The notes: generated by a model from the sequence alone, not told the origin. A stretch of 64,000 nt of DNA from a bacterium (GCA_016125085.1 WGMM01000007.1:248001-312000), one strand, 5' to 3'; shown: positions 15,447-25,747, counted from the stretch's first letter. A program made the numbers and translations.

Positions 15447-15952
15447 TGGTTCTCTCGTTCGCAATCGATGAGTTCCGCGAACATGCCGCCACGCATTTGA
15501 TGCCGTGTGGTTCGCGAAAGCCGTTGATCCATTTCCGACCGGTGTCGGTTCGGCCATCGTTCGCCGATCTTTGCAGATACGACAGTCATAATCAACATTG
15601 AGGAATCTTCGCGAGATGCTCCGACCTACGGAAGATACGAAAACCGCAAACCATATGCCGACCACGCGAAGCGCCAGCCTCCACACTCCTGAAATTGGCA
15701 CAGACCAAAAATGTTTTTAGTCCCTACTGAAAAGGAACTTGCGCCGAAGTCTCGGATTTTCGGCAAGTTTTCGCGTCAAAAAACGTTCCGTAGTGGGTGA
15801 CAGGGCAGGGGACGTGGTGTGCTGCTTCATGCTCGTGGTGGGTGCTTCATACTCTTTGGCGGTTTAACATCGCTCAAGAGCAGTTTCGCCCGGCCTCAGC
15901 GCGTATCGGTTCGATCATCCGTCACGGAATTTCGGGAAGGCATAACTGGCCG
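15447..15952. other. long intergenic region with a structured segment
   Basis: 506 bases between divergent genes. It contains a hairpin at 15736-15769 (listed separately). The rest of the sequence is irregular, with G/T-rich words (gtggtg, tgcttcat twice) at 15800-15860. No gene is supported. Confidence 0.4.
15736..15769. other. hairpin inside an imperfect inverted repeat
   Basis: AACTT (15736-15740) and GCCGAA (15743-15748) pair with TTCGGC and AAGTT (15759-15769), leaving a two-base bulge. Outer flanks GGAAC and GTTCC also match, so the structure may span 15723-15796. No plus-strand gene lies upstream for it to terminate; it may be a leader, a small RNA or the end of an element. Confidence 0.35.
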
Positions 15953-18403
15953 ATGAATCCGTACTCAAGCGATTCTCTGCTCGATCAGAAACGAATGGAC
16001 GAGATCCTGAGCGATCCCGTTCAGAAGGCCAACTACGATACAGCCGTCGAATTTCTGAAGGAGAACGCGCGGCCTGAGAGTATCCCCGGCTACCTCGAAG
16101 GCATCGACTTCCGCCAGGACGTCAAGGTGGTCGAAATCAAGGAAGGCGAGATCCTCCAGCGATCGGGCTACGAACAAAACGCCGGGAAGCTTGTTCCCGA
16201 CGGCGGCTTTTTCGCCAAGCCTGGCACGGCGGAGAAGGATTTGGGGCTGGTCGATTTCGGCACCGACCGGGACAGCGGCAAGGACAGGGACTTCTTTCAG
16301 GCCACACGCAGTTTCGAGGCCCTTCAGAGCACGGCCTCCGATTTTGAGCGGCCGACCGAGAACGGCTTCAACGATCCCGGGTTGCTCTTGAAGGGGGGCG
16401 AGACGCAGTATTTCGTCCCGCACCGCGAACGAACCGGCTACACCGAGACCGACCCGCGGACGCAGGAAACCCGGCAGCAAGGGCCTTGCCTGGAACGTGT
16501 CGTGAGCTTCGAACGACAGCCCGACGAACCAGATCCGGACCAAACCCCGCCCACAGCGCAGGAATCGACGAAAGAGGCCCCCATGTTCCAGAACAAAGAG
16601 GAAGAACAACGCAGCCGGGAGGCCATGGACGCCAACACGCAGGCACCGGCCGCCGATACTTGGAAATTACCAAATCAGAAAAACAAAAATCAACCGCAAA
16701 CAGGAAACGAGAGAACGATGAACTTCTCTACAATCACGCCCAAAATTGGTATATGCACAATTATTCTAGGCTTAATACTCATTCTAAACACAGGACAACT
16801 AATTACCAAAGCACAGACACAGAAGACAGAGAACTCAGCAAACGTTATCTCTATTAAGCAGGATTTTGTAAGAAGAAATACTGAAGACGATGCCGATGCG
16901 AGAGAAAATAGAGCAAGAACTTTAAACACAAAACAGTTTAATGTTAAAAAAGGAGACATCCTAATTAATGCCAAGTTCATCAAAGCAAATAGATTTGATG
17001 AAAAAGGAATGATCAATGAGACAACAAACCGAGAATCACCATTACAGGTTGTATTTACCATTTACAAAACGAACGAAAAGAAGATATTTCAGCCAAAAAT
17101 TGCATTTCCAGAAGGTATTATTCTAAATGACGATTTTCTTAGAAATTCAGAATCTATGATGAGAGAAATGTCTATGTCGTTTTCAAATTTCCTCCTCCCT
17201 AGTGATTTATTTAAACGAGAGTATTATTTTAGTTTTTTCGGAACACCTGCATCAGAAGTAAATACCGTAGGAATCAGCAACCGAGGCAATGTTCTTTTAT
17301 GTATTAGATTATATTGGCAAGTTGGTGCATTTAATTGTTCAGGCTATCTCTTAACCGAACTTCTTGAGAATAACACATTAAAACCAATTGTCCTTATTTC
17401 TACTCACCGCGATGAAAATCCTTATCACAGAATCATTAATAACGCAAATGGAGATTTATTGTTTGCTGCTCCGAATCATAGCTTATTTCGGTTAACTGAA
17501 TCTGGGATTGAAAAAGTAATGAAGTTCCCAGACATTTACTCAATTTACTGCGGTTCACCTGCTACCATTTGCGTAGATTCCAAGAATCGGGTTTATGCTT
17601 ATGCTCTTGACAAAAAGACCCTCGATTATGGACTTTATCGATTTGATGGTGCTAATGAACCAAAATTAATATTCGCTCCTGATTTGACTATTCTTGAAAA
17701 GCATCTCGAAAATCGAATACCGATTAAAGAATTCTTGAAAGATGAATCCGATCGTACAAGACGTGATCCGGATTTCAACTTTTCAATTATTTCAAGTAGT
17801 ATCGATGAAATGCAACAAATTGGCAGAAATTTTCTTGGAGGCGATCCGAACCCCGGAAAAGAGTTGACAGAAAAAATTCTCGCTAATAGCAGAGCTTTTA
17901 CGCTAGATACCAATGATAATTTAATAATTCCTGGACACCCGATATTCACCACCAAAGACGCGCAAGGCAACGAAACGAAAGATAGATTCCCCACGTTTAT
18001 TAAATTAGATCAAATGGATAAAGCTTTTCCATTTTTTCGGTTTAATAAAGACTTTCCGCTTTACCCTTATCATTATCAATGGACTGGTGAAAGTCGGAAT
18101 GAACTTTCATTTTCAATGGCCGCAATTGTAATCTTTAATGTCAAATCTATAGATAAGAAATATTCTTTTTCTGATTTGACACAGTTTGAAAACCTATTCA
18201 ATGAAAAACACTCAAAGGTCATGGTGCCAATTCCTTCAATAAAAAAAGCTGGCGGCTACGATTTAATTCCAGGACTCAAGTATTATCTTTATCATAATGA
18301 GAAGACTTTACGTGTAGAGGAGATTCATGATGAAAACAATAAAATCGAAAAAAACCAAAAAAGGAAGGCATTGCTCGATGATGATGCTATTGAACTTAAG
18401 TGA
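15953..18403 (+). CDS. chimeric ORF: GC-rich N-terminal region joined to an AT-rich exported-protein gene
   Basis: An uninterrupted 816-residue frame from ATG 15953 (MNPYSSDSLL). It has two parts of quite different composition. Residues 1 to about 235 use GC-rich codons like the neighbours and form an acidic protein with EGEILQRSGYEQN and DGGFFAKPGTAEKDLGLV; the block EILxRxG...GxFFAxPGT loosely recalls the TNT/DUF4237 toxin fold, but that is only a resemblance. From about 16660 the DNA turns AT-rich. At 16718 an internal ATG follows AGGAAACGAGAGAACG and begins a signal-peptide-like segment (MNFSTITPKIGICTIILGLI). So the 561-residue AT-rich part (16718-18403) may well be a separate transferred gene that happens to be in frame. 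That part has beta-propeller-like pieces (NANGDLLFAAPNHSLFRL; VDSKNRVYAYALDKK). Function unknown. Confidence 0.6.
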   Translation: MNPYSSDSLLDQKRMDEILSDPVQKANYDTAVEFLKENARPESIPGYLEGIDFRQDVKVVEIKEGEILQRSGYEQNAGKLVPDGGFFAKPGTAEKDLGLVDFGTDRDSGKDRDFFQATRSFEALQSTASDFERPTENGFNDPGLLLKGGETQYFVPHRERTGYTETDPRTQETRQQGPCLERVVSFERQPDEPDPDQTPPTAQESTKEAPMFQNKEEEQRSREAMDANTQAPAADTWKLPNQKNKNQPQTGNERTMNFSTITPKIGICTIILGLILILNTGQLITKAQTQKTENSANVISIKQDFVRRNTEDDADARENRARTLNTKQFNVKKGDILINAKFIKANRFDEKGMINETTNRESPLQVVFTIYKTNEKKIFQPKIAFPEGIILNDDFLRNSESMMREMSMSFSNFLLPSDLFKREYYFSFFGTPASEVNTVGISNRGNVLLCIRLYWQVGAFNCSGYLLTELLENNTLKPIVLISTHRDENPYHRIINNANGDLLFAAPNHSLFRLTESGIEKVMKFPDIYSIYCGSPATICVDSKNRVYAYALDKKTLDYGLYRFDGANEPKLIFAPDLTILEKHLENRIPIKEFLKDESDRTRRDPDFNFSIISSSIDEMQQIGRNFLGGDPNPGKELTEKILANSRAFTLDTNDNLIIPGHPIFTTKDAQGNETKDRFPTFIKLDQMDKAFPFFRFNKDFPLYPYHYQWTGESRNELSFSMAAIVIFNVKSIDKKYSFSDLTQFENLFNEKHSKVMVPIPSIKKAGGYDLIPGLKYYLYHNEKTLRVEEIHDENNKIEKNQKRKALLDDDAIELK

Positions 18404-22834: not shown

Positions 22835-23146
22835 ATGAGTTCCGCGACAGTTACGACCCACACGGATGACTGGGTGCGTCATTTGCTTTTCGATCGCGGG
22901 TTTCTGGCTTCGATGAAGGGCGAGTCGATCAAGGTTTATTTGACGATGCTGACGGCCTGTGGCGGTGAGCCGGACCGCAGTGTTACCATAAGCCTCCGGT
23001 CGATCCAGGACGCGACGAACCTGTCGTGTCCGACGGTGATCGATTCTCTCAATCGACTCGAAGAACTCGGACTGGTGGTACCGACCATGCGGAAAAGCGG
23101 CAGAGTGAAGACCTACTACATTCCCGGCGTGCCCCCCGAAAATTGA
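22835..23146 (+). CDS. small winged-helix DNA-binding protein
   Basis: A 103-residue protein after a strong ribosome site (GGAGGAGGGGGCC). It is essentially one winged helix-turn-helix domain: KGESIKVYLTMLTAC (helix 1), SLRSIQDATNLSCPTVIDSLNRLEELGLV (HTH) and a wing ending VKTYYIPG. Its layout parallels the N-terminal domain of the next gene (SSVKVYLVIGLYA, PSIRTIAKQSGLSRQTVLNAIEDLVNQGIV), so the two look like paralogues. Likely a transcription or replication regulator for the module. Confidence 0.7.
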   Translation: MSSATVTTHTDDWVRHLLFDRGFLASMKGESIKVYLTMLTACGGEPDRSVTISLRSIQDATNLSCPTVIDSLNRLEELGLVVPTMRKSGRVKTYYIPGVPPEN

Positions 23147-23238
23147 TCGTCAGAGCGGAACCGGCCTATGTAAAGGCCGTGCCCTGACCGATTTTCGATG
23201 GATGTGCGACAACTCCAGGAACGTAGGACGGATTCTCG

Positions 23239-24300
23239 ATGGATCCCTTTTTTTTCCGTGTCGAACATGACCTCGTGCGATCCGAGGCATTTCGTCAGCT
23301 CAACGGATCGTCCGTGAAGGTCTATCTCGTGATCGGGCTTTACGCCGATTTCGAGACCGGCTGGGCTTATCCCAGCATCCGGACGATCGCGAAACAGTCG
23401 GGCCTGAGCCGACAGACCGTTCTGAACGCGATCGAGGACCTGGTCAACCAGGGCATCGTGGCGACCTCGAAGTCGGCCGGCCGTTCGACGGCGTACCGAA
23501 TTCTTCACAACGCGCCGCCGCGACCGTCCTCAAAATCTCAGAAGGACAAGCCGAACCGGTCTAAAAGTTTTAGTGAACACCTCGAAAGTGTTCCAGAATT
23601 TTTAGATCACACCCCCGGAACTGTCCTGAATTCCAGGACACCGGAGGCACCGACTGGTCCATTTTTTAGTGATGACGAGGCCCAGTTCTGGAACGAACCT
23701 GGTCCGGAATCTGGGCCTAAACAAGAACAGTCGAACAAGAATCCTGTCAACGACAGCGCTCCGAGCATCGAGATACCGGGAACGCCGTTCCGGGTCACGC
23801 TGGACGGACGGTTGTTGTCGTTGATGAGTCTGGATGAAGTCCTGATCAAGCAGGGGGTCAATGAAGACTCCGCCAGGTATCTGGCTCACCGGTATGAGGC
23901 GGACCGGGTAATCAAGGCCGTTCTGAACGTGATGTATCTCGATAAGTCGAAGAAACTTCAGAACGCACCTGGATACTTGCGGATGGCTCTGGAAAAGGGC
24001 TACGAACTTCTGCCCCAGATGGCTCAGAAGATCGAGAAGCGAAGATCGCTCCTGACGCAGGACATCGGGCAGAACCTGATGAAAGAAAAGAAGATGCTCG
24101 AGCGGGAAAAGCTCGCGGCCGAGGAGGCCGCGATCAACCTGATGATCAGCAACCTGAAGCGCGAGGAACTCGAACGTCTGATTCGCCAGGCAGTCGGTTC
24201 GCTTCCCGAACCGCTGGTCAAACGGAACCCGTCGATCACGAATCCTCTGATCCGTGCTCGCGTCTATGAACTGGCGACCCGGATCACCGAATCGAACTGA
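23239..24300 (+). CDS. HTH_36-type, replication-initiator-like protein
   Basis: A 353-residue protein in three parts. Residues 15-90 form a winged helix (HTH_36 type). Residues 95-175 are a polar Ser/Pro/Glu-rich linker. From about 180 comes a helical region with LIKQGVNEDSARYLAHRYEA and LQNAPGYLRMALEKGYELLP; this pattern (short helix with G-V-x-E, then N-P/A-G-x-L-x-x-A-[IL]-x-x-x-Y) resembles the C-terminal part of plasmid and phage replication initiators of the RepA type. Residues 260-310 are a charged coiled coil. So a replication initiator or its chromosomal relative is likely, but a regulator cannot be excluded. It follows the small winged-helix gene by 92 bases. Confidence 0.6.
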   Translation: MDPFFFRVEHDLVRSEAFRQLNGSSVKVYLVIGLYADFETGWAYPSIRTIAKQSGLSRQTVLNAIEDLVNQGIVATSKSAGRSTAYRILHNAPPRPSSKSQKDKPNRSKSFSEHLESVPEFLDHTPGTVLNSRTPEAPTGPFFSDDEAQFWNEPGPESGPKQEQSNKNPVNDSAPSIEIPGTPFRVTLDGRLLSLMSLDEVLIKQGVNEDSARYLAHRYEADRVIKAVLNVMYLDKSKKLQNAPGYLRMALEKGYELLPQMAQKIEKRRSLLTQDIGQNLMKEKKMLEREKLAAEEAAINLMISNLKREELERLIRQAVGSLPEPLVKRNPSITNPLIRARVYELATRITESN

Positions 24301-24337
24301 TCGCTTCGAACGGCAATTCCCGAAAGCGGGATCCGCT

Positions 24338-25747
24338 CTATCCGCCCGGCTTACGCGTGACGACCAGGTCGCGAACCTGCCCTAACAGCCGCTTCCCGGA
24401 TCGGGATGCGTTGATCTGGTCGGGTCGGTAAGCGCCTTCCATCGGGCAAGAAATTCTGCGGAGAGGCAGGAAACCCAGCCCTGTCAGAATTCTGTAAGAC
24501 TCGAAGGCATGATCGACATAGCCCCAGCCTGACGGCAGACCCTTTTCCGTCCGGTTTGCGATCAGAACGGCAAGCACCCCGCCTGGGCGTAAGGCGGCGT
24601 AGCATCTTTCGTAAATACGTTCGAGTGCCGTAGTCCATGCTTCGTCGGTCAGTTCCGAAACGCTGCCGACGGCGTAGTGACCGTCGAGCATGGAATGATA
24701 CGGCGGATCGAGGAAAATCAGGTCGCAGTCGGCGGCTTCGTCCGGCAGAGAATTCCGGGAAATGTCGTGAAGCACGATATCTGGCCGGTTTGGGGCCAGA
24801 TCATAAGCCAGGCAGCGCCGGTTCATGCTGGAACAGACGTCGATCGTGGTTCCGCCGCCAGCCATGGGGTCGACGACCAGGTCGCCCGGCTCGCTGAAAT
24901 AGTGAAGGGCGTTGGCCACGATTCCGGCCGGGATCGAACCTGGATAGCGTGTGCCATAGGCCCGGTCGTGTTTGAACATCCAGACGTCATAGGGCGTCGG
25001 CTGGAAGTCGTTGGCTAGGTGATTCTGGCGCCGGAGGTCCTTGAACGCGGCATGGATCGACTTCGTCCCGGCGTCTAGCTCGCTCAGGGCGGCCTTGGCT
25101 CGGGCGTTTCCGTCGTTTGCGGCTTTCCAGACCGCCCGGGCCTGGCGGAACTGATCTTTGCCGCCTAGGCCGACCAGTTTGGCGACCAGCGTATCGGTAC
25201 GTTTGGGGCGACCTTTACGGCCTTGATCCGCCAGTTTCGTACCGATCTCCGGAGTGTCGGAATTCCGACACTCGGCATCGTCAGGCACGAAAAGCTTGGG
25301 AGCGGCGGACCGGGTCAGGTTCGCCAGGCTGCGCCGGCGGGCTTGGTCGGCGTAAAGCGATTCCAGGGCATCGGCTTCACGCATGCGCTGGGAGAATGTC
25401 TTGGTGCGGGCGTGGTTCGACTCGATGACCCAGAGCTCGCGCTCGGCGTCGTCCGCAGGGCATCGCACGCAGGCGTTCAGCGATTTCCAGCCAAGTCTTT
25501 GAGCCGCCGCGAGTCGGCGGGTCCCGGAGAGCACGGCATAACCCTGGCCGGCCGGTTCGACGACGATCGGCGTGAGTTGCCCGTGGCGATTCAGGCTGTC
25601 GGCCAGGGCATCGAGCGATTCGGCCGAATCCTGATAGAGTCGCAGCGGAAGTTCATGTGGTGTCAGCGTTTCGATCGGCAGACGAAGGACCGGTTCCGCT
25701 GTTGCGGAATTCTCGTCGATCAATCTTGTCAGTCGCCGGGCTGGCAT
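24338..25747 (-). CDS. ParB-like domain fused to DNA methyltransferase
   Basis: A 469-residue protein. Residues 20-95 are a ParB/Sulfiredoxin-type domain (ADSLNRHGQLTPIVV, then SGTRRLAAAQRLGW). A linker at 105-240 is basic and helical. Residues 250-465 are an amino-methyltransferase: SAM motif DPMAGGGTT (293-301) before the catalytic DPPY (347-350), so an adenine-N6 or cytosine-N4 enzyme with motif I ahead of motif IV. No restriction endonuclease gene lies beside it. ParB-MTase fusions are common on phages and mobile elements and may mark or protect DNA. It converges on the replication-like genes with 37 bases between stops. Confidence 0.8.
   Translation of the reverse strand: MPARRLTRLIDENSATAEPVLRLPIETLTPHELPLRLYQDSAESLDALADSLNRHGQLTPIVVEPAGQGYAVLSGTRRLAAAQRLGWKSLNACVRCPADDAERELWVIESNHARTKTFSQRMREADALESLYADQARRRSLANLTRSAAPKLFVPDDAECRNSDTPEIGTKLADQGRKGRPKRTDTLVAKLVGLGGKDQFRQARAVWKAANDGNARAKAALSELDAGTKSIHAAFKDLRRQNHLANDFQPTPYDVWMFKHDRAYGTRYPGSIPAGIVANALHYFSEPGDLVVDPMAGGGTTIDVCSSMNRRCLAYDLAPNRPDIVLHDISRNSLPDEAADCDLIFLDPPYHSMLDGHYAVGSVSELTDEAWTTALERIYERCYAALRPGGVLAVLIANRTEKGLPSGWGYVDHAFESYRILTGLGFLPLRRISCPMEGAYRPDQINASRSGKRLLGQVRDLVVTRKPGG

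What the first reader, a model, noticed from the sequence alone, without database searches (positions are those of the whole stretch)
22835..25747. Replication-initiator-like pair facing a ParB-methyltransferase: relic or resident mobile element?
Two paralogous winged-helix proteins, the second with a Rep-like C-terminal half, converge on a ParB-MTase fusion. Rep-like and ParB-like functions usually belong to plasmids, phages or integrative elements, yet no integrase or transposase is here. Perhaps a reduced element or a domesticated replication/marking module.
Basis: partly seen in the sequence, partly recalled or inferred. Interest (0 to 1): 0.6.

Follow-up and report, generated by a model that had tools for sequence, protein, structure and literature searches.

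The report
Plasmid-type replication origin resident in chromosomes
A family of planctomycete bacteria (Isosphaeraceae) carries, as a fixed chromosomal locus, a plasmid- or phage-style replication initiator whose candidate binding sites lie inside its own gene, next to a ParB-methyltransferase gene that contains its own conserved DNA palindrome; at least one complete chromosome shows signs that this locus acts as a second replication origin.

Summary
The observation largely holds, but this is not a mobile element or a relic. The three genes (A, small wHTH; B, 353-aa HTH_36 initiator; C, ParB-N6/N4 methyltransferase) form one unit, A>B><C, in all 37 Isosphaeraceae genomes analysed (A truncated or divergent in two). 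B is single-copy in 39 of 45 family genomes and full-length in none of about 154 others of the class. B and C trees keep every multi-member genus together: vertical inheritance.

Two hidden DNA elements were found. (1) B's disordered linker is encoded by iterons: 22-bp sites AACTGGTCCAAATTCTTTAGA at 33-bp period (88 held-out sites; 1.5 expected after synonymous recoding), the layout of lambda O and pSK41 RepA_N initiators. (2) C contains a palindrome, (Y)GTCGGAATTCCGAC(R), usually once per genome (34 of 37 genes within one mismatch; 1.1 expected).

In Singulisphaera acidiphila, strand asymmetry shows a second origin-type switch at the locus, opposite dnaA. Other chromosomes give partial support or none. 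An rRNA operon diverges from the locus in 11 of 11 checkable genomes, though not in the window's own genus.

Best reading: a domesticated O/RepA_N-like replicon serving as a secondary chromosomal origin, with the ParB-methyltransferase marking it.

The parts
22835..23146 (+). Gene A: 103-aa winged-helix protein, paralogue of the N-terminal domain of B; inferred regulator or partner
   Evidence: present in front of B in all analysed genomes, truncated at a contig end in G060 and divergent in G022
23239..24300 (+). Gene B: 353-aa initiator-like protein (HTH_36 domain, disordered linker, helical C-domain)
23266..23508 (+). B winged-helix DNA-binding domain (aa 10-90)
   Evidence: AF2 model; PF13730; Foldseek pSK41 RepA N-domains
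23512..23751 (+). B linker (aa 92-171): disordered protein, DNA carries the iteron array
   Evidence: pLDDT below 50 for residues 92-171; excess synonymous conservation; TTA/TCT codons and low GC3
23554..23575 (+). Iteron 1 (PWM 23.8 bits; 21.0 held-out)
23586..23607 (+). Iteron 2 (PWM 28.5 bits; 28.7 held-out)
23652..23673 (+). Weaker further iteron (PWM 15.0 bits); a degenerate site with internal dyad lies between, near 23620
   Evidence: below the 15-bit cut in the held-out test
23710..23730 (+). Conserved block TCTGGGCCTAAACAAGAACAG downstream of the iterons
23752..24297 (+). B C-terminal helical domain (aa 172-353), no named family; inferred to recruit helicase or primase
24338..25747 (-). 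Gene C: ParB-like / DNA methyltransferase fusion, convergent to B
25418..25690 (-). C ParB/Noc-type nucleotide-binding domain (aa 20-110; GxRR region; N111 and R114 just C-terminal invariant)
25252..25273 (.). 22-bp perfect palindrome GAGTGTCGGAATTCCGACACTC inside the C coding sequence (candidate parS-like site)
25010..25198 (-). C helical HTH-like segment (aa 184-246)
   Evidence: AF2 model; alignment
24341..25000 (-). C methyltransferase domain (aa 250-469; motif I DPMAGGGTT, motif IV DPPY)

Best explanation
The locus is a domesticated phage/plasmid-type replicon fixed in the Isosphaeraceae chromosome. Shown computationally: B has the layout of lambda O and pSK41 RepA_N initiators (winged helix, disordered linker, helical C-domain), and the DNA encoding the linker is an array of 33-bp-phased 22-bp iterons under selection as DNA. 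Inferred: B binds these iterons, opens the origin and loads the replication machinery through its C-domain; A, an N-domain-only paralogue, competes for iterons or pairs with B to limit firing; C binds the single palindrome in its own gene, loads there as a ParB/Noc-like nucleotide-gated clamp, and methylates or marks DNA around the origin. In at least S. acidiphila this makes a secondary chromosomal origin roughly opposite dnaA, and in 11 of 11 checkable genomes an rRNA operon faces away from it.
For: B single-copy and vertical: 39 of 45 family genomes, no full-length hit in other class genomes; all 10 multi-member genera monophyletic for B and C. A>B><C retained in 37 genomes. Iterons: leave-one-genus-out PWM finds 88 sites of at least 15 bits vs 1.54 expected from the same proteins with codons redrawn, spaced 32-33 bp; Leu TTA 40% in the linker vs 2-3% elsewhere in B. 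Replication-initiator PHROGs in 34 of 34 members; AF2 shows the linker disordered; Foldseek matches pSK41-type RepA initiator N-domains 4pql, 4pt7, 5kbj. In pSK41 the ori lies inside rep and encodes a dispensable linker, and pPR9 Rep carries the same pfam13730 N-domain (PMC5703833); ori-lambda lies within the O gene (PMC5043065). Palindrome: 34 of 37 C genes within one mismatch vs 1.06 expected; the exact 14-mer is in 27 of 45 genomes, once in 25 of them. Origin signature in S. acidiphila: GC/AT skew R2 0.11-0.15 for dnaA alone vs 0.43-0.58 with the locus added, no better position among 80; 35 of 42 G/T runs agree with the two-origin pattern, 0 of 60 shuffles reach that. 16S rRNA immediately upstream and divergent in 11 of 11 genomes where both are assembled. 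In G030 all three 16S copies point away from the locus.
Against: DnaA is present family-wide, so the locus is not the only origin. G/T runs give no support in G025 (P 0.77) and weak support in G023 (P 0.37) and G030 (P 0.17), although windowed GC/AT skew improves with the locus in G025 (R2 0.08 to 0.41) and slightly in G023. In G028 one freely placed origin with very unequal arms still agrees with 32 of 42 runs, and other second-origin positions agree with up to 37; its 16S copies at 3.33 and 4.14 Mb oppose forks from the locus. Skew minima can arise by rearrangement (PMC4403523). Isosphaera pallida-sized G022 lacks the iterons and has the locus about 92 kb from dnaA. tRNA strands in G064 and G066 do not favour it. 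No clear AT-rich unwinding element or DnaA boxes. The window's own genus lacks the adjacent rRNA operon.
Confidence: 0.58

Rival explanations
1. The iterons and palindrome are operators: A and B are transcription factors binding inside B, and C binds inside its own gene, giving an autoregulated epigenetic switch with no replication role.
For: Foldseek's best hit for B's N-domain is CodY; GntR/MarR-type wHTH Pfam hits. In-gene sites can regulate.
Against: Operators normally sit at promoters, not three in phase in the middle of the gene; PHROG hits are replication initiators in 34 of 34 members; B has a large conserved C-domain; origin-type strand switch in S. acidiphila.
Confidence: 0.17
2. The locus once was an origin (ancient replicon fusion) and now serves another role, such as initiator titration, fork pausing or origin segregation, while DnaA-oriC does all initiation.
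For: DnaA everywhere; skew weak or absent in G025, G030, G064 and G066; G022 lost the iterons.
Against: Iterons kept under selection in 36 of 37 genomes, in phase and together with the initiator; strong skew in S. acidiphila; divergent rRNA operons.
Confidence: 0.17
3. Replication fork trap or terminus marker (RTP/Tus-like): wHTH protein bound at repeats opposite oriC.
For: The locus lies about 45-48% of the chromosome from dnaA in G023, G025, G028 and G030; winged-helix protein on phased sites.
Against: In S. acidiphila the skew switch at the locus has the polarity of an origin, the same as at dnaA, not of a terminus. A terminator protein would not need the conserved C-domain. Positions of 34% (G014) and 98% (G022) do not fit.
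Confidence: 0.05
4. Mobile element or its remnant.
For: Homologues of the ParB-methyltransferase sit in phage replication modules (MW202554.1, 99% coverage, 32% identity; L255, L256); in the window's genus the triplet sits in a different neighbourhood.
Against: Single-copy, family-wide, vertical, housekeeping neighbours; no full-length B on plasmids or phages; no recombinase found.
Confidence: 0.03

Closest known systems
RepA_N plasmid initiators (pSK41, pTZ6162) and the chimeric pPR9 Rep
   Same: Winged-helix N-domain; replication iterons lie centrally inside the rep gene and encode a linker; separate C-domain with host-specific role; pPR9's N-domain is pfam13730, as in B (PMC5703833); Foldseek similarity of B's N-domain
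   Different: No PF06970 match in any of 34 B proteins; C-domain unrelated by sequence; chromosomal, single-copy and vertical; accompanied by A and a ParB-methyltransferase
Bacteriophage lambda O and O-like initiators
   Same: Initiator with iterons inside its own gene (PMC5043065); O-like PHROG matches
   Different: 33-bp spaced direct sites; no P-like partner identified; fixed in a bacterial family; no obvious AT-rich block
Noc / ParB CTPase clamps (7nfu, 6sdk, KorB 8qa9)
   Same: ParB fold with GxRR and N/R motifs; HTH-like segment; palindromic site
   Different: C-terminal dimer domain replaced by a DNA methyltransferase; new palindrome GTCGGAATTCCGAC; site inside its own gene; no ParA beside it
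ParB-N6/N4-methyltransferase fusions of phages and prophages
   Same: Same domain pair, reported as phage-enriched (PMC12704722); full-length homologues in phages
   Different: Here a vertically inherited chromosomal gene with an embedded palindrome; the three phage homologues examined have no such palindrome
Fused two-origin chromosomes (Vibrio cholerae NSCV, Agrobacterium)
   Same: Two different origin systems on one chromosome (PMC6284228 listed; PMC12153318)
   Different: Those are isolated strains; this locus is conserved through about 20 genera of a family

Membership tests
RepA_N initiator (PF06970) | RepA_N sequence domain | tested here: not met
   no PF06970 among the families listed for 34 members at E up to 1 (first 25 of 59 families shown) nor for the window protein, whose 23 families are all shown
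RepA_N initiator (PF06970) | winged-helix N-domain fold of pSK41/pTZ6162 RepA | tested here: inconclusive
   Foldseek 8e-4 to 1e-2, TM about 0.5 to target; CodY scores slightly better
RepA_N initiator (PF06970) | iterons inside the rep gene encoding a linker | tested here: met
RepA_N initiator (PF06970) | C-domain binding DnaG | not testable with these tools
   needs protein interaction assay
Lambda-O-type initiator | sequence match to O-like initiators | tested here: met
   phrog_391, 678, 18020 and 8540 (O-like) in 34 of 34 members
Lambda-O-type initiator | ori iterons within the initiator gene | tested here: met
Lambda-O-type initiator | AT-rich unwinding element next to iterons | tested here: inconclusive
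   AT peaks at 0.48 within the iterons only, no separate AT block
ParB/Noc CTPase clamp | ParB N-terminal fold with GxRR and N..R motifs | tested here: met
ParB/Noc CTPase clamp | CTP binding | not testable with these tools
   the usual E of box III is replaced by Y or S in most members; a methyltransferase fusion can bind ATP instead (PMC12704722)
ParB/Noc CTPase clamp | C-terminal dimerisation domain | tested here: not met
   replaced by methyltransferase
ParB/Noc CTPase clamp | cognate palindromic loading site | tested here: inconclusive
   a conserved palindrome exists; binding untested
N6/N4 DNA methyltransferase | SAM motif I and DPPY motif IV | tested here: met
   conserved DPMAGGG and invariant DPPY
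Integrative mobile element | patchy distribution, recombinase, multiple copies | tested here: not met
Chromosomal replication origin | origin-type strand-asymmetry switch | tested here: inconclusive
   met in S. acidiphila, partial in G023, mixed in G025 and G030
Chromosomal replication origin | replication starts there in vivo | not testable with these tools
   needs marker-frequency sequencing

The most novel reading that the evidence does not exclude
A whole bacterial family has, since its ancestor, replicated one chromosome from two unrelated origins: DnaA-oriC and a captured O/RepA_N-like origin with in-gene iterons, the second managed by a ParB-methyltransferase clamp loaded at a single palindrome.
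Probability: 0.35. Interest if true: 0.93.

Novelty: new variant of a known kind. Interest (0 to 1): 0.76.

Why it matters
One origin per bacterial chromosome is treated as the rule; known two-origin chromosomes are isolated fusion strains. A captured plasmid- or phage-type origin kept by selection through about 20 genera would make that rule, and how two unrelated initiators are coordinated, directly testable in culturable strains such as Singulisphaera acidiphila. Independently of that, the iterons and the palindrome are two new DNA sites under selection inside coding sequence, each paired with an obvious candidate binder.

Tried and rejected
Mobile element: rejected on distribution, copy number and trees. 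Terminus or fork trap: suggested by position opposite dnaA, rejected because the skew polarity in S. acidiphila is that of an origin. Iterons as a by-product of a repeated peptide: rejected by synonymous recoding. Palindrome as a conserved peptide: rejected likewise; substitutions change the peptide (R to L or P) and several outer-arm changes are matched on the other arm. Many contigs ending 0.7-1.1 kb upstream of B: traced to the adjacent 16S gene. Canonical parS at the locus: none; parS clusters lie elsewhere. DnaA boxes at the locus: none beyond chance. G014 skew is chaotic (up to -0.44) and was not used. tRNA strands were uninformative or unfavourable. Whole-genome layout, further letters and G064/own-contig skew could not be obtained; the G/T-run list was cut off before G064 was complete and omitted G066. 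A C-domain-only Pfam scan failed on coordinates and was replaced by the whole-protein scan. PADLOC gave only generic methyltransferase and wHTH matches, so a defence system is not indicated.

Full report
WHAT IS THERE. Three ORFs at the stated coordinates: A (22835-23146, +, 103 aa), B (23239-24300, +, 353 aa) and C (24338-25747, -, 469 aa). A and B are winged-helix proteins; A aligns to the N-domain of B. B carries PF13730 HTH_36 (4.5e-12) and matches replication-initiation PHROGs; all 34 aligned orthologues match O-like, DnaD-like or other initiator PHROGs. The Rep-like signal is therefore N-terminal; the C-domain has no named family. C is ParB_N plus N6_N4_Mtase, its ParB part closest in the PDB to Noc and Spo0J and by fold to Noc, ParB and KorB.

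A CORE CHROMOSOMAL UNIT. The genome belongs to the Isosphaeraceae (relatives named, e.g. Singulisphaera acidiphila DSM 18658, which is handle G028). A profile of B finds one full-length copy in 39 of 45 family genomes and none in about 154 others of the class; six family genomes lack it, most of them incomplete or fragmented drafts, and five of those also lack a full C. A>B><C is kept in the 37 genomes examined (A cut at a contig end in G060, divergent in G022). All ten genera with two or more members are monophyletic in B and C trees, and B-C distances correlate at 0.85. B has no full-length relative on plasmids or phages. In most genera the neighbours are a divergent rRNA operon upstream and GT2, LABN-like and trpC-like genes downstream (functions read from the sequence by the author, not scanned). 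In the window's own genus the surroundings differ (no rRNA; aldose epimerase upstream, WD40/DUF1501 downstream), yet the triplet is intact.

ITERONS INSIDE B. AlphaFold2 gives a wHTH (10-90), a disordered stretch 92-171 and a helical C-domain. Exactly that stretch has excess synonymous conservation, low GC3 (0.54 vs 0.73-0.81) and rare codons (Leu TTA 40% vs 2-3%; Ser TCT 33% vs 2-5%). It encodes 22-bp sites AACTGGTCCAAATTCTTTAGA spaced 33 bp, about three helical turns. The motif was seeded by eye, so it was tested leaving each genus out: 88 sites of at least 15 bits in 36 of 37 genomes, against 1.54 expected when the same proteins are re-encoded with local codon usage. Genomes are related, so these are not 88 independent events. 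G022 (Isosphaera pallida by size, an inference) has none. Motif hits outside B are few (42 hits of at least 9 bits in 577 kb).

PALINDROME INSIDE C. The linker between the ParB and HTH parts of C is variable in length, but its DNA holds GATCGTCGGAATTCCGACGATC or a variant. The 5-codon windows here are the most synonymously constrained in the gene (0.60 vs mean 0.11, SD 0.08). The core is within one mismatch in 34 of 37 genes vs 1.06 expected after recoding. Several outer-arm changes are matched on the other arm (e.g. GAGTGTC/GACACTC, GTTCGTC/GACGAAC). The exact 14-mer occurs in 27 of 45 genomes, once in 25, with zero control hits; a few extra copies (G035, G009, G032) lie elsewhere. A dyad of this kind suits a dimeric DNA-binding protein; C is the natural candidate but A or B are not excluded, and an mRNA hairpin was not ruled out.

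IS IT AN ORIGIN? DnaA is present in 44 of 45 genomes. In four complete chromosomes the locus lies about 45-48% of the way round from dnaA; G014 (34%) and G022 (92 kb from dnaA) differ. In S. acidiphila (G028), sampled 20-kb windows show GC skew positive, negative, positive, negative, switching from negative to positive both near dnaA and at the locus. Adding an origin at the locus raises R2 from 0.11-0.15 to 0.43-0.58, and none of 80 scanned positions does better. Independent whole-chromosome G/T runs agree: 9/10, 5/7, 9/11 and 12/14 in the four arms, 35 of 42 in all; no shuffle of 60 reached that, although the runs alone do not single out the locus (9 of 48 grid positions do better). Elsewhere support is partial: G023 has a sharp local switch (runs 9 of 11 negative to the left) but its fit is not unique; G025 is supported by windows, not by runs; G030 is weak on both, though all three of its 16S genes point away from the locus, which would put them head-on to forks coming from dnaA. 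In S. acidiphila itself two of six 16S genes oppose a second origin. Skew minima alone are not proof (PMC4403523; PMC3269012).

HOW IT PROBABLY WORKS. Shown: initiator-type protein, in-gene iterons, constant partner genes, conserved palindrome. Inferred: B oligomerises on phased iterons and recruits helicase or primase via its C-domain, as proposed for pSK41 Rep, whose ori also lies inside rep and whose encoded linker is dispensable (PMC5703833); A modulates B; C loads at the palindrome and marks the region. The ParB-methyltransferase fusion type is known mainly from phages (PMC12704722), and its nearest full-length phage homologue sits beside a DNA polymerase, so capture from a phage-like replicon is plausible.

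VERDICT. Not a mobile element. A new variant of the O/RepA_N-like replicon type, resident in chromosomes. The claim of a second active origin is reasonably supported for one species, open for the family. Literature searches returned no paper holding both 'Isosphaeraceae' and 'replication origin', or 'Singulisphaera acidiphila' and 'origin of replication', in an open-access library only.

Noticed in passing
G022 C2 4.91-4.92 Mb; G066 C1 0.68-0.69 Mb; G030 C1 about 3.75 Mb; G023 C1 0.4-0.8 Mb: Canonical parS clusters lie about 0.55-0.69 Mb from dnaA, and best-fit first-origin or skew switches in G030 and G023 lie at a similar distance, hinting that oriC in this family is not beside dnaA.
   Followed up: partly
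window 15797-18403: An ORF of 868 aa in a low-GC patch (0.44 at 16-18 kb vs about 0.60 around), with a sub-threshold match to Ntox46; looks recently acquired.
   Followed up: partly
G066:C1:1488004-1490663: A dense array of more than a dozen tRNA genes on one strand within 2.7 kb; perhaps carried by an element.
   Followed up: no
G035:C81:38801-39226, G099:C1:5590609-5590995, G010:C25 and C26: B's C-terminal domain alone gives weak profile matches inside 474-574-aa open frames elsewhere; these could reveal its function.
   Followed up: no
L261:4017-5567 (IMG/VR contig): A viral contig has a ParA-like gene directly followed by a 216-aa wHTH protein related to B's N-domain, so this wHTH subfamily also occurs in partition-like settings.
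   Followed up: partly
G014 (BPJS01000001.1): A nominally single-contig MAG with 20-kb GC skews from -0.44 to +0.24 in no order; unreliable for replication analysis or biologically odd.
   Followed up: no
gene A, aa 29-36 (window about 22919-22942): Codons for ESIKVYL in A are also unusually conserved, resembling the same stretch in B; cause unknown.
   Followed up: no
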